8,946 nt of DNA from JADFSZ01 sp022560555 [NCBI: PVC group bacterium] (lineage in GTDB: Bacteria; GCA-001730085; JADFSZ01). Below the pieces are notes generated by a model. The model was given only the letters and a program-made list of their open reading frames with translations, made no database searches and was not told where the DNA came from. Position 1 is the stretch's first letter, and each line of letters opens with the position of its first letter. The stretch covers positions 1-8,946 of the forward strand of contig JADFSZ010000062.1 of assembly GCA_022560555.1 (NCBI GenBank), in the 5' to 3' direction. The position numbers and the translations under genes were made by a program. Shown here in pieces: positions 1,083-3,656 of the stretch.

Positions 1083-1096
1083 ATTGCTCTTACGAT

Positions 1097-1396
1097 TTAT
1101 GAAACGATTTTAAAAATAAAGTAAATGCATGCAATGATTAAAAGCGTGAAAATGATGTAAATATCGCTGTACTTCCAAAAATCGCTCAATCGGTTAATCA
1201 TTCCTCCATACCGGAATTTATATAATGCTCCTTCGCGATTTTTAAAGCGTTCGATTTCTTCGCGGTCAAACCGGAGGATCTTCCCCGCAACTTTATAGGC
1301 CTTGATCTTTTTTTGGCGAACCATTTTTTTAAAATTTCGATGACTCAAGTTCAAATATTCTGCCGCTTCATCCAAACTGATATATTTTTTGCGCAT
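1097..1396 (-). CDS. Small HTH (excisionase/MerR-like) protein with C-terminal membrane helix
   Basis: The 99-residue product has two visible parts. Residues 4-53 look like an HTH_17-type (excisionase/MerR-like) winged helix: ISLDEAAEYLNLSHRNFKKM forms the two helices, AYKVAGKILRF the wing, and DREEIERFKN the last helix. After a basic linker (about 54-76), residues 78-97 form one strongly hydrophobic segment (DIYIIFTLLIIACIYFIFKI) ending two residues before the C-terminus, so the protein is probably tail-anchored with the HTH in the cytoplasm. An AGAGGT Shine-Dalgarno lies 8 bases before the ATG. It sits between a bactofilin carrying a similar HTH and trpE, probably in one transcript. I do not recognise a named family for the whole protein. 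Possible roles are tethering DNA to the membrane or, as with RodZ and MreB, binding a cytoskeletal partner through the HTH. The architecture is clear; the function is inference. Confidence 0.85.
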   Translation of the reverse strand: MRKKYISLDEAAEYLNLSHRNFKKMVRQKKIKAYKVAGKILRFDREEIERFKNREGALYKFRYGGMINRLSDFWKYSDIYIIFTLLIIACIYFIFKIVS

Positions 1397-1430
1397 AACA
1401 CCAAACCTCTTAGTCGCATTCTTATTGAGG

Positions 1431-1457
1431 GATGGGGATGATTATCAATCCACCATC
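1431..1457 (-). promoter_or_regulatory. Hairpin in the leader of the HTH-membrane gene
   Basis: On the minus strand GATGGTGGAT and ATCCCCATC pair over nine base pairs with one bulged T around an eight-base loop (TGATAATC). It lies in the 126-base gap after the bactofilin-HTH gene, about 35 bases before the next start codon. No T-run follows it, so it is not a classical terminator. It could be an RNA processing or stability element, or chance. The rest of this gap shows no convincing promoter or gene. Confidence 0.3.
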
Positions 1458-1522
1458 ACATAAATAGCTTACCGGTCATCCATGGATAGGACAGGTCGTG
1501 GCCCCTTAAAGAACCCTTCACC

Positions 1523-2056
1523 TTATTTACGTAGTTCCGATTCAGTGACCCACGCATCAATACGAGAACGATTAAATTCCCAATGATCCTCTCTCTGAAC
1601 AGCAGGGATTTTTCCTTTTTGCGCCCATTGGTTGAGTGTTTTGGGATCAATTTCCAGATACGTACACACTTCGGCTTCGGACATCAAACTATGTCCTTTC
1701 GTCCCGCCTTCTTTCGACATCATGTCGCACCGGCCGTGGAAATAAGCGCCGTCTTCAATACTGATTTTCGGAGTATGGATATCCCCTTCGACACGCGCGG
1801 TGGATGTCAACCGTACACGAATAGACGCCGTGATCGTTCCTTTCACGCGGCCTCCGATTTCCACTTCATCCCCGTCAATCGTTGCTGTCACAACGGATTT
1901 AGGACCGACAATCAACAGACCTTTTGTGATCAATTCTCCGTCAAAACTCCCGTTGATCTTAAGATTAACGGAATCCTTAAATGTCAATTTCCCCTGCATA
2001 TCCGCATTGATATCCAAAAACTTTTCCTCTTGTACCGGCTCATGTCTTCTTGCCAT
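1523..2056 (-). CDS. Bactofilin fused to a C-terminal helix-turn-helix domain
   Basis: This is a 177-residue two-domain protein. Residues 13-112 are a bactofilin (polymer-forming cytoskeletal, formerly DUF583) domain: repeated beta-helix rungs such as LKINGSFDGELITKGLLIVG, VEIGGRVKGTITAS and ARVEGDIHTPKISIEDGAYF, ending in the typical GRCDM. Bactofilins polymerise without nucleotide into filaments that scaffold cell-shape, polar or chromosome-organising proteins. Residues 123-175 form an HTH_17-like domain (MSEAEVCTYLEIDPKTLNQW, wing REDHWEFNR, final helix SRIDAWVTE). Ordinary bactofilins have only the core plus short disordered tails. No membrane segment is visible, and the N-terminus (MARRHEPVQEEK) is charged. 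A purine-rich Shine-Dalgarno (AAAGGGGA) lies 5 bases before the ATG, and the start is only 17 bases after the kinase stop, so the two are almost certainly cotranscribed. The fold assignments are firm; whether the HTH binds DNA or protein is unknown. Confidence 0.9.
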   Translation of the reverse strand: MARRHEPVQEEKFLDINADMQGKLTFKDSVNLKINGSFDGELITKGLLIVGPKSVVTATIDGDEVEIGGRVKGTITASIRVRLTSTARVEGDIHTPKISIEDGAYFHGRCDMMSKEGGTKGHSLMSEAEVCTYLEIDPKTLNQWAQKGKIPAVQREDHWEFNRSRIDAWVTESELRK

Positions 2057-2073
2057 ACGAGTCCCCTTTCTCT

Positions 2074-3543
2074 TTATGGGTTGATAACAGATGTTTCTTC
2101 TTTGTCCGAAAATACCGGAAGTTCAATGGTAACACAGGTCCCTTTATTCACCTCACTTTCAAGCTTAACAGTTCCACCGTGTTCCTGAACAACACGCGCC
2201 ACGGTCGTGAGGCCAAGTCCGATATTGGCTTCCTTCTTCGAATAAAATAGATCAAACACATAAGCGCGTTCGTTTTCGGGTATACCGCATCCCGTATCGC
2301 AAAATTTGAGAAGAAATTTCTCTTCATCCAATTTCTTTGTCTCGATCTTAAAAACACCCCCTTGAGACATAGCCTCTTTCGCGTTCATGATAATATTAAT
2401 AAGAGCTTGTTCGACTGAATTCTCATCCAGCAAGATTTGAGGAATGGATTGGTCAAATTCAGTCTGTATTTCGATCCCATGACACGCTAGCTCATGATCC
2501 GTAAGAGCCAAGGCTTTATTGATCACATCGTGAATATTACACCGCCGTGAAACATACTCTTTTCCTCCTGCAAACATGGACACATCACGGATAATCTCAA
2601 GAACCTTGTTTAGATATTCTTGGACAATGCGCAGATTTTTAACAACATACTCCGGAACCTTCTCAGGCTCAATTTTTGACAATAGATATTCGACCCTGCC
2701 ATAAACGGATGTGAGCGGATTATTGAGATTGTGCGCCAGCGTCATGGTGATATCTCCCAACAAGGTGTTTTTCGAAGACGACAGCAATCGATTTTGCAAC
2801 CTCACCCTCTTGGTTACTTCATCAAACAGCAAAACTACGGAATCGCTTCCTTCCGTCGCGACAAGAGGGAAACAACGGACATTAAAAAACCGTCTTTGGG
2901 CTTGAGGCGCAGAGGTTTTATAGGAAACATTGTTCAGAGTATATACAATGTTTTTCTCGCAAACATAATCAACGATTTCATTGACAAAATTCGAACGAAA
3001 ACCGCTCATAAATTCCGATACAGAATCCCCGATATCTTTCGAGGTAACTGAAAAGAAATCCCGTGCTTTTTTATTGAGTGACAAAATCCGGCAATCACGA
3101 TTCAGGCAAAAAAGAGCACTGTCAATACTATCCAGAACCCGGATTTGAAAATCCATTAATTCTTTGATTCGCAAAAGCGCCTGAATTTTAGCAATCAACA
3201 CATCATTTATAAAGGGCTTGGTAACGTAATCATCAGCCCCGACATCCAAGCCGGTGATTTGATCGGCTGTTTCCGATTTGGCCGTTAACATCAAGACGGG
3301 AACGAATCGATTCCCTTCCATCGTTTTCATCTTTTTACATACCTCTGTCCCGGGAATATCAGGAAGCATCAAATCTAAAATCACAAGATGAATATGATCA
3401 TGCGTACGAACCATATCCACGGCTTCTTCTCCTGTTTGGGCCTGCAAAATACAATATCCTTCCCCCTCAAGCAGCATTTTTAAAAGTTCCTGGGAGTCCG
3501 GATCGTCTTCAACGACCAAGAGGGTTGGAGGGATGATATTCAT
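2074..3543 (-). CDS. Soluble hybrid sensor histidine kinase (REC-PAS-HisKA-HATPase_c)
   Basis: A 489-residue cytosolic signalling protein. An N-terminal receiver (about 6-128) has acidic residues E12-D13-D14, phosphoacceptor D57 in VILDLMLP, T87 and K109 in YVTKPF. A PAS-like region follows (about 130-245), then a HisKA helix with H271 in LAHNLNNPLTS, and an ATPase domain with N-box N383/N387, G1 box DTGCGIP (416-422), F-box FDLFYSKK and G2 GLGL (442-445). It has no membrane helix and no DNA-binding output domain. It should take phosphate at D57 from another kinase, or sense a cytosolic ligand, and signal through H271. Asn replaces the usual Glu/Asp after the histidine. ATG 3543 is preferred over an in-frame GTG at 3585 because it puts the receiver's first strand at the normal distance and leaves about 54 bases of leader after the predicted promoter, against about 12. 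It is the first gene of the unit that continues into bactofilin-HTH. Its partner regulator is not in the window. Confidence 0.92.
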   Translation of the reverse strand: MNIIPPTLLVVEDDPDSQELLKMLLEGEGYCILQAQTGEEAVDMVRTHDHIHLVILDLMLPDIPGTEVCKKMKTMEGNRFVPVLMLTAKSETADQITGLDVGADDYVTKPFINDVLIAKIQALLRIKELMDFQIRVLDSIDSALFCLNRDCRILSLNKKARDFFSVTSKDIGDSVSEFMSGFRSNFVNEIVDYVCEKNIVYTLNNVSYKTSAPQAQRRFFNVRCFPLVATEGSDSVVLLFDEVTKRVRLQNRLLSSSKNTLLGDITMTLAHNLNNPLTSVYGRVEYLLSKIEPEKVPEYVVKNLRIVQEYLNKVLEIIRDVSMFAGGKEYVSRRCNIHDVINKALALTDHELACHGIEIQTEFDQSIPQILLDENSVEQALINIIMNAKEAMSQGGVFKIETKKLDEEKFLLKFCDTGCGIPENERAYVFDLFYSKKEANIGLGLTTVARVVQEHGGTVKLESEVNKGTCVTIELPVFSDKEETSVINP

Positions 3544-3587
3544 TTGCTTTGGATATTTGACGGACACAAAAAATCCTATCGGCACGA

Positions 3588-3656
3588 ATTTATCAACTAC
3601 TTTAGTATATATTTAAACTATGCGAAAGACAATGCTTTTTTAATATATTGATAAAT
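3588..3656. repeat. 9-bp inverted repeat bracketing the kinase promoter
   Basis: ATTTATCAA at 3588-3596 and its exact complement TTGATAAAT at 3648-3656 lie with their centres 60 bp apart, about six helical turns. They flank the predicted -35/-10 pair, and the downstream arm covers the expected transcription start. They could be operator half-sites allowing looping, but the region is AT-rich and chance is a real alternative. Confidence 0.3.
3604..3632 (-). promoter_or_regulatory. Predicted sigma-70-type promoter for the kinase-bactofilin-HTH unit
   Basis: On the minus strand TTGTCT (3627-3632, 4/6 to consensus) is followed after exactly 17 bases by TATACT (3604-3609, 5/6). The DNA just upstream of the -35 (ATATATTAAAAAAG) is A/T-rich, like an UP element. 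Transcription would begin near 3597, about 54 bases before the ATG at 3543. This is the best promoter-like sequence I see in the window and marks the start of a unit separate from dnaE. Confidence 0.55.

What the first reader, a model, noticed from the sequence alone, without database searches (positions are those of the whole stretch)
1097..3632. Candidate signalling-scaffold-anchor module between dnaE and trpE
One predicted promoter leads into a soluble REC-PAS kinase, then after 17 bases the bactofilin-HTH, then the HTH-membrane protein. Both small proteins carry related HTH folds with common landmarks (YL in helix 1, KI.A before the wing, an aromatic after it, a final Ile-containing helix). 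Together they could tether a chromosomal site to a membrane-bound bactofilin polymer under phosphorelay control. This is the best candidate for an undescribed system here.
Basis: inference. Interest (0 to 1): 0.6.

Follow-up and report, generated by a model that had tools for sequence, protein, structure and literature searches.

The report
Bactofilin with matching membrane anchor partner
Two neighbouring genes, one making a filament protein with a DNA-binding-type head and one making a small membrane protein with the same kind of head, turn out to be a conserved pair across an uncultured bacterial phylum and probably form a membrane-attached internal scaffold, while the signalling gene beside them is only a local neighbour.

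Summary
The three genes are present as described but are not a conserved trio. No relative of the kinase lies near the pair in 67 fetched loci (61 distinct places). The two small genes are a real, apparently undescribed unit. Full-length bactofilin-HTH homologues occur in 37 of 50 genomes reached through related dnaE genes: 37 of the 46 titled Omnitrophota, 0 of 4 others. In 35 of the 37 the HTH-membrane gene follows on the same strand; two cannot be tested. By my hand count of 384 genomes of that phylum, 317 have both genes, 1 the fusion only, 21 the membrane gene only, 45 neither. The pair usually sits between tsaD/mgtC and larB; in the window's genome tsaD and larB adjoin (25 bases) and the pair lies elsewhere. 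Across the family the recognition helices of both HTHs lack the positive charge of 40 HTH_17 controls from such genomes. I therefore favour protein coupling (a tail-anchored HTH protein tying a bactofilin polymer to the membrane, much as RodZ ties MreB) over a DNA tether. The window's own membrane protein is strongly basic, so DNA binding there is not excluded.

The parts
1523..2056 (-). bactofilin-HTH fusion protein (P0002, 177 aa)
   Evidence: Pfam Bactofilin and HTH_17; full-length match to the family profile, 228.9 bits (P0002 is one of the 37 rows of that profile)
1727..2014 (-). bactofilin domain (residues 15-110)
   Evidence: Pfam 1.3e-24; PDB 2n3d Bactofilin A 1.7e-9 and 6ria 6e-6
1541..1687 (-). 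HTH_17 (MerR/excisionase-like) domain of the fusion (residues 124-172)
   Evidence: Pfam 1.3e-9; BldC 6ama 2.8e-4
1097..1396 (-). tail-anchored HTH-membrane protein (P0003, 99 aa)
   Evidence: Pfam HTH_17 2e-11; model pLDDT 78.5, winged HTH followed by a long helix; family alignment A2
1235..1384 (-). HTH_17 domain of the membrane protein (residues 5-54)
1154..1183 (-). conserved juxtamembrane aromatic motif (window DFWKYSDIYI, family DFFYFNDFYI; residues 72-81)
   Evidence: columns D72, F73, Y80 invariant in 36 sequences; columns 75 (family Y, window K), 76 (family F, window Y) and D78 at 90% or more
1100..1156 (-). C-terminal hydrophobic, probably transmembrane segment (residues 81-99)
   Evidence: 19-residue hydropathy 2.59
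2074..3543 (-). soluble REC-PAS-HisKA-HATPase histidine kinase (P0001, 489 aa): a local neighbour, not a conserved part
   Evidence: hydropathy; absent near the pair in 67 loci
   Evidence: 9 of 12 matches; number of such sites not above shuffles

Best explanation
The functional unit is the gene pair, not the trio. The bactofilin part polymerises into a membrane-proximal filament that displays a regular array of MerR-type HTH heads. The small partner is a tail-anchored membrane protein with a cytoplasmic HTH of the same family, an aromatic juxtamembrane motif and one C-terminal TM helix. The two HTHs most likely bind each other, or the partner HTH binds the filament, so that the membrane protein anchors and positions the bactofilin scaffold much as RodZ's HTH-TM protein holds MreB. 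Shown here: domain make-up, conservation, adjacency, the near-one-way dependence of fusion on partner, adjacency kept in two different genomic places, and loss of positive charge in the recognition helices of the family. Inferred: polymerisation, the HTH-HTH contact, the membrane role and any link to cell-wall or envelope work.
For: Fusion in 37 of 50 genomes (37 of 46 titled Omnitrophota), 39-49% identical to P0002. Partner directly downstream on the same strand in 35 of 37, the other two untestable; 30 of 30 in the best-scoring A2 loci, 6 of which are places already among the 37. By hand count of 384 genomes with my own thresholds: both 317, fusion only 1, partner only 21, neither 45, so the fusion is almost never found without the partner. 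In 17 of the 21 partner-only genomes the partner sits in the usual slot right after tsaD or mgtC with no bactofilin within 1.5 kb; the other 4 are cut by contig ends. The pair kept its adjacency though its site differs in the window's genome, where tsaD and larB are joined. Fusions form one clade against 6 other bactofilins (100/99). Mean recognition-helix charge: fusions -0.81 (n 37), partners -1.19 (n 36), controls +2.75 (n 40); p 5e-14 and 3e-12, not corrected for relatedness. Distances of the two HTHs correlate beyond TsaD, partial rho 0.39, not tested for significance (29 loci). F130 of Caulobacter BacA (polymerisation-deficient when F130R, PMC12448750 passage) aligns with P0002 F106 if the 2n3d chain numbering equals BacA numbering. 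An MTS-like N-terminus by my loose pattern is present in 25 of 36 homologues, not in the window. Precedent: RodZ's HTH is important for binding MreB (PMC4047632, passages).
Against: No interaction was modelled: the fusion did not fold from a single sequence (pLDDT 36) and no two-chain prediction was made. HTH_17 is a DNA-binding fold, and the P0003 model is closest to RacA-DNA, Xis and BldC-DNA structures (none at E 0.001 or better). The partner's wing is as positive as in the controls (1.94 against 1.90); only its helix differs. The window's own P0003 is basic (recognition helix +6, with wing +10; next highest in the family +2 and +4), against the family trend. The partner persists without the fusion in 17 genomes, so it must also do something else there. 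The neighbours named (tsaD, mgtC, gatB, ctpA, larB) are mixed housekeeping genes and do not point to one process. The charge correlation between paired HTHs is not significant (rho 0.27, p 0.11). The juxtamembrane/TM part shows little co-divergence with the fusion (partial rho 0.12-0.16).
Confidence: 0.5

Rival explanations
1. Chromosome tether: one or both HTHs bind a chromosomal site and the bactofilin polymer plus membrane protein hold it at the membrane, as RacA or the PadC-ParA-bactofilin system does.
For: MerR-type fold; the best structural match of P0003 is the RacA-DNA complex (E 9e-3) and the A1 profile weakly matches RacA (E 0.32); window P0003 HTH is strongly basic; the partner's wing stays positive in the family; bactofilins do organise ParABS in Myxococcus through PadC (PMC5703909 passages).
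Against: Family-wide loss of positive charge in the recognition helix of both HTHs, and in the fusion's wing too, against 40 controls; no ParA/ParB-type protein among the ten neighbours put to Pfam.
Confidence: 0.2
2. Membrane-bound transcription regulators: the pair is a local regulator of the operon it sits in, the bactofilin part serving only for oligomerisation.
For: HTH_17 family; stable place inside one gene cluster in most of the 37 loci.
Against: Acidic or neutral recognition helices; the pair sits beside unrelated genes in the window's genome while adjacency of the two is kept.
Confidence: 0.12
3. Three-gene phosphorelay module as proposed: the kinase controls assembly of the tether.
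For: 17-base gap and same strand in the window, so co-transcription with the fusion is plausible in this organism.
Against: No kinase match near the pair in 67 loci, 61 distinct places; no kinase beside dnaE in the other dnaE loci that have DNA there.
Confidence: 0.06
4. Gene-order hitchhiking: the two genes stay together only because the tsaD-larB cluster is stable, without a physical partnership.
For: Most loci share that cluster (tsaD upstream in 31, larB downstream in 25 of 37).
Against: In the window's genome the pair is adjacent although it lies outside that cluster; fusion-only genomes are almost absent (1 of 318 by hand count); both carry the same kind of HTH.
Confidence: 0.12

Closest known systems
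Bactofilins (PF04519: Caulobacter BacA, Thermus bactofilin, Helicobacter CcmA, Myxococcus BacNOP)
   Same: Bactofilin domain over the Pfam cut-off and matching solved bactofilins 2n3d and 6ria; hydrophobic residue at the position aligned with BacA F130; MTS-like N-terminus in 25 of 36 homologues
   Different: Carries a C-terminal HTH_17 domain. None of 29 bactofilin loci from other genomes has one.
RodZ-MreB anchoring
   Same: Cytoplasmic HTH plus one TM helix in a protein tied to a cytoskeletal filament; the HTH used for protein contact (PMC4047632, passages)
   Different: RodZ has a periplasmic domain, a different HTH family (recalled) and an actin-like partner; here the filament protein itself also carries an HTH and the TM is at the very C-terminus
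Myxococcus BacNOP-PadC-ParA
   Same: Bactofilin scaffold with an adapter that has a possible, low-scoring HTH (PMC5703909, passages)
   Different: PadC is a separate ParB-like protein that binds BacP's C-terminal extension; the passages seen describe no membrane-anchored HTH partner
RacA / BldC / Xis MerR-like winged HTHs
   Same: Fold of the P0003 model
   Different: Those bind DNA; the family here has lost the positive recognition helix, the window's P0003 excepted

Membership tests
Bactofilin | Bactofilin domain at family cut-off | tested here: met
   86.7 bits, cut-off 27.9
Bactofilin | Nucleotide-free polymerisation | not testable with these tools
   only the hydrophobic residue aligned to BacA F130 was seen (numbering assumed)
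Bactofilin | N-terminal membrane-targeting peptide (consensus MFSKKKK) | tested here: inconclusive
   loose pattern of my own in 25 of 36 homologues; window starts MARRHEPV and does not fit; consensus from PMC12448750 section 8
HTH_17 (MerR/excisionase-like) | HTH_17 domain at cut-off in both proteins | tested here: met
   38.6 and 44.3 bits, cut-off 27
HTH_17 DNA-binding proteins | positive recognition helix | tested here: inconclusive
   not met for the family (means -0.8 and -1.2 against +2.75 in controls), met for window P0003 (+6), in between for window P0002 (+2); DNA binding itself not testable
RodZ | HTH-TM with periplasmic domain and binding to MreB | tested here: not met
   hydrophobic window ends 0-5 residues from the C-terminus in 35 homologues, so no periplasmic domain; MreB binding not testable; no Pfam RodZ-type HTH among the matches
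Phosphorelay module with kinase | conserved kinase gene beside the pair | tested here: not met
   0 of 67 loci, 61 distinct places
Chromosome anchor (RacA/PadC-like) | sequence-specific DNA or ParA/ParB binding | not testable with these tools
   charge evidence speaks against it for the family

The most novel reading that the evidence does not exclude
A phylum-wide, undescribed cytoskeletal system of Omnitrophota and a neighbouring lineage. A MerR-type DNA-binding fold has been recruited twice, once onto a bactofilin and once onto a tail-anchored membrane protein, as a matched pair of couplers that dock a bactofilin filament on the membrane. In the window's lineage the membrane-bound HTH is strongly basic and may in addition hold DNA, giving a filament-membrane-chromosome link.
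Probability: 0.4. Interest if true: 0.75.

Novelty: new variant of a known kind. Interest (0 to 1): 0.6.

Why it matters
Bactofilins are widespread, but how each finds its membrane site and its clients is worked out in few species (recalled). Here a dedicated partner comes with the filament gene across most sampled genomes of a large uncultured phylum, with a simple testable prediction (HTH-HTH docking). It would also be a clear case of a DNA-binding fold turned into a cytoskeletal coupler, as in RodZ but in another HTH family and on both partners. The pair could be studied in a heterologous laboratory host.

Tried and rejected
Kinase as part of the system: rejected. Position beside dnaE/trpE as meaningful: rejected; guaA was detected in 39 of 81 dnaE loci, but what follows dnaE is not the module. 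Fusion as a one-off or assembly artefact: rejected. First impression that relatives lack the fusion: that search drew 145 genomes whose phyla are not told, and the one genome-contig scan with P0002 confirmed no relative, probably because its six exact peptide patterns suit only close relatives. My misread several loci on the wrong strand; repeated properly, all 29 loci hold a bactofilin frame and none an HTH. An apparent fusion of both genes into one frame in one locus rests on withheld bases and was dropped. AlphaFold of P0002 from one sequence failed. Charge correlation between paired HTHs was not significant. My simple gene caller lost the fusion in some loci and was replaced by a homology-based one. 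The hydropathy cut of 1.6 is not clean: none of 40 controls passes it, but two partners (L164, L176) score 1.58 and one fusion (L174) 1.63. In print: searches for bactofilin with helix-turn-helix, with DNA-binding domain/chromosome/fusion, with RodZ, with MerR/excisionase/HTH domain, and with Omnitrophota or Omnitrophica showed nothing on such a fusion in the listings. Only an open-licence library was searched and some lists were capped. For PMC7203096 only the first 300,000 characters are held, and they contain no mention of bactofilin.
Full report
What is there. On the minus strand the window reads guaA, dnaE, a REC-PAS-HisKA-HATPase kinase without an evident membrane segment (3543-2074), a bactofilin with a C-terminal HTH_17 domain (2056-1523), a 99-residue HTH_17 protein with a C-terminal hydrophobic segment (1396-1097), and trpE. 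The 17-base kinase-fusion gap is exact; 126 bases separate fusion and membrane gene, and 14 bases separate that gene from trpE. The promoter match is real, but such matches are about as frequent in shuffled sequence. The window is contig 31 of a 1.66 Mb, 222-contig genome; its phylum has one other held species, G001.

Taxonomic setting. In a 74-row dnaE tree (window and 73 of the 81 other loci; shorter frames dropped) the window and G001 group together (SH-aLRT 92), on long branches, outside the Omnitrophota rows (quick method, midpoint root, so the place is unsure).

The trio does not hold. In 81 dnaE loci (80 from genome contigs and G001; 73 have at least 1 kb and 54 at least 6 kb after dnaE) guaA was detected in 39, but neither small gene follows dnaE; two plain bactofilin matches lie about 9 kb away on the other strand, and the nearest kinase-like frame after dnaE is 2.4 kb away on the other strand. 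In G001 dnaE is followed by what read by eye as an amidase and murI. The kinase sequence finds nothing (phmmer, E 0.01) in 67 loci around the pair, which are 61 distinct places.

The pair does hold. P0002 searched in 50 genomes reached through dnaE loci (46 titled Omnitrophota, 4 others) found homologues with both domains in 37, all among the 46, 39-49% identical; the shortest match, cut by withheld bases, covers residues 9-153. I fetched these 37 loci with up to 6 kb on each side. In 35 the membrane gene follows on the same strand, -32 to 199 bases away with starts chosen by my rule; in one of the other two the contig ends and one holds withheld bases. Alignments: A1, 37 fusions including the window, one of the 37 fetched loci left out; A2, 36 membrane proteins including the window. 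The profiles were then run on 384 genomes drawn evenly from G163's phylum. A2 matched 373 at E 1e-3, of which 338 were below 1e-15. A1 matched 370, of which 318 were below 1e-30. These two sub-counts and the table of 317 both, 1 fusion only (G537), 21 partner only and 45 neither are hand counts of the printed columns with my own thresholds; G183, which holds only a fragment, counts as absent. Relatedness and incomplete assemblies are not corrected for. The 30 best A2 loci all have the fusion just upstream, 7-175 bases away; 6 of them are places already among the 37.

Elsewhere. A1 in 386 'relatives' of the window (the window, G001, and 384 others of which those listed are labelled same domain, phyla not told) matched 210 at E 1e-15. 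The window itself, a row of that profile, scores 228.9 bits over the full length; the next best is 105.2 bits over the bactofilin part only. Of 29 bactofilin loci from the 145-genome search none has an HTH in the bactofilin frame (loci). In the fusion tree the 37 fusions are one side of a branch against 6 plain bactofilins (100/99), with the window deepest (93/84). One old origin is the simplest reading; an ancient transfer is not excluded.

A move that kept the pair. In most of the 37 loci the order is (gatB) - ctpA - (polysaccharide deacetylase) - tsaD - mgtC - FUSION - PARTNER - larB or CO-dehydrogenase genes: tsaD lies upstream in 31 of 37, mgtC in 29, ctpA in 27, gatB in 25, the deacetylase in 21; larB lies downstream in 25, CdhD and RACo in 15 each (contig ends hide some). 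Ten neighbour proteins were put to Pfam (S41 peptidase, deacetylase, TsaD, MgtC, AIR-carboxylase-like, nickel insertion, T2SSE, CdhD, RACo, SNase); gatB, and the names larB and larC for the AIRC-like and nickel-insertion proteins, are my reading. In the window's genome ctpA, tsaD, larB and larC run on in contig 197 with a 25-base tsaD-larB gap and no pair or mgtC between. So in one lineage or the other the pair has probably changed place and stayed a pair. That is the best evidence against mere hitchhiking, though it is one event.

One-way dependence. The 21 partner-only genomes were read out. In 17 the upstream DNA is intact and the partner follows tsaD or mgtC directly with no bactofilin in the up to 1.5 kb on either side; 4 are cut by the contig end. 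So the partner can exist without the fusion, while the fusion is almost never found without the partner. This fits a membrane platform and a dependent scaffold. It also means that the partner has another role in those genomes.

What the HTHs do. The P0003 model (single sequence, pLDDT 78.5) is a winged HTH running into a long helix; Foldseek's best matches are RacA-DNA, Pukovnik Xis and BldC-DNA, none at E 0.001 or better. As a control I took 40 standalone HTH_17 proteins from the genomes, chosen because they matched P0002's HTH. Their recognition helix carries on average +2.75 charges; the fusions -0.81 and the partners -1.19. The wing: controls +1.90, fusions +0.03, partners +1.94, so the partners' wing is not reduced. 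Together: +4.65, -0.78, +0.75. The sequences are related, so the p values (5e-14, 3e-12) overstate independence, and whether the controls bind DNA is not known. The window is an exception: P0003 has +6 in the helix and +10 with the wing, far above the next in its family (+2 and +4), and P0002 has +2 and 0. Hence the family points to protein contact, while for this organism DNA contact stays possible. Distances between the two HTHs correlate beyond what TsaD from the same loci explains (partial rho 0.39, 29 loci, no significance test). The charge correlation is not significant, and the juxtamembrane/TM part shows almost no such correlation.

Mechanism. Bactofilins bind membranes through an N-terminal peptide (consensus MFSKKKK), and polymerisation and membrane binding help each other (PMC12448750: passages and section 8 seen). 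A loose version of that peptide is present in 25 of 36 homologues. RodZ is the precedent for an HTH-TM protein that contacts a filament by its HTH (PMC4047632, passages). PadC is the precedent for a bactofilin linked to chromosome machinery (PMC5703909, passages). I judge membrane anchoring by HTH coupling most likely (0.5), a chromosome tether next (0.2). The kinase may still be co-transcribed in this organism; that is a local matter.

Novelty. Both domains are known; the fusion, the matched tail-anchored partner and their phylum-wide coupling did not turn up in the literature searches named under Tried and rejected. I rate it a new variant of a known kind.

Noticed in passing
window 1083-1096: The membrane gene ends only 14 bases before trpE, so in this organism it may be co-transcribed with trpE, while 126 bases separate it from the fusion.
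   Followed up: no
L288-L301, L303, L304, L306: In 17 genomes the HTH-membrane gene stands alone after tsaD or mgtC without the bactofilin: a natural test case for what the partner does by itself.
   Followed up: partly
L002 (G000:C157:1304-1594): The window's genome has a second bactofilin-family match (33.7 bits) inside a longer frame that by eye looks like a membrane protein with several hydrophobic stretches.
   Followed up: no
window 2074-3543: The kinase has a REC domain in front of PAS and kinase domains and no evident membrane segment or output domain; its partner is unknown.
   Followed up: no
L284 (G000:C197): The ctpA-tsaD-larB-larC neighbourhood of Omnitrophota is kept in the window's lineage without mgtC and without the pair.
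   Followed up: yes
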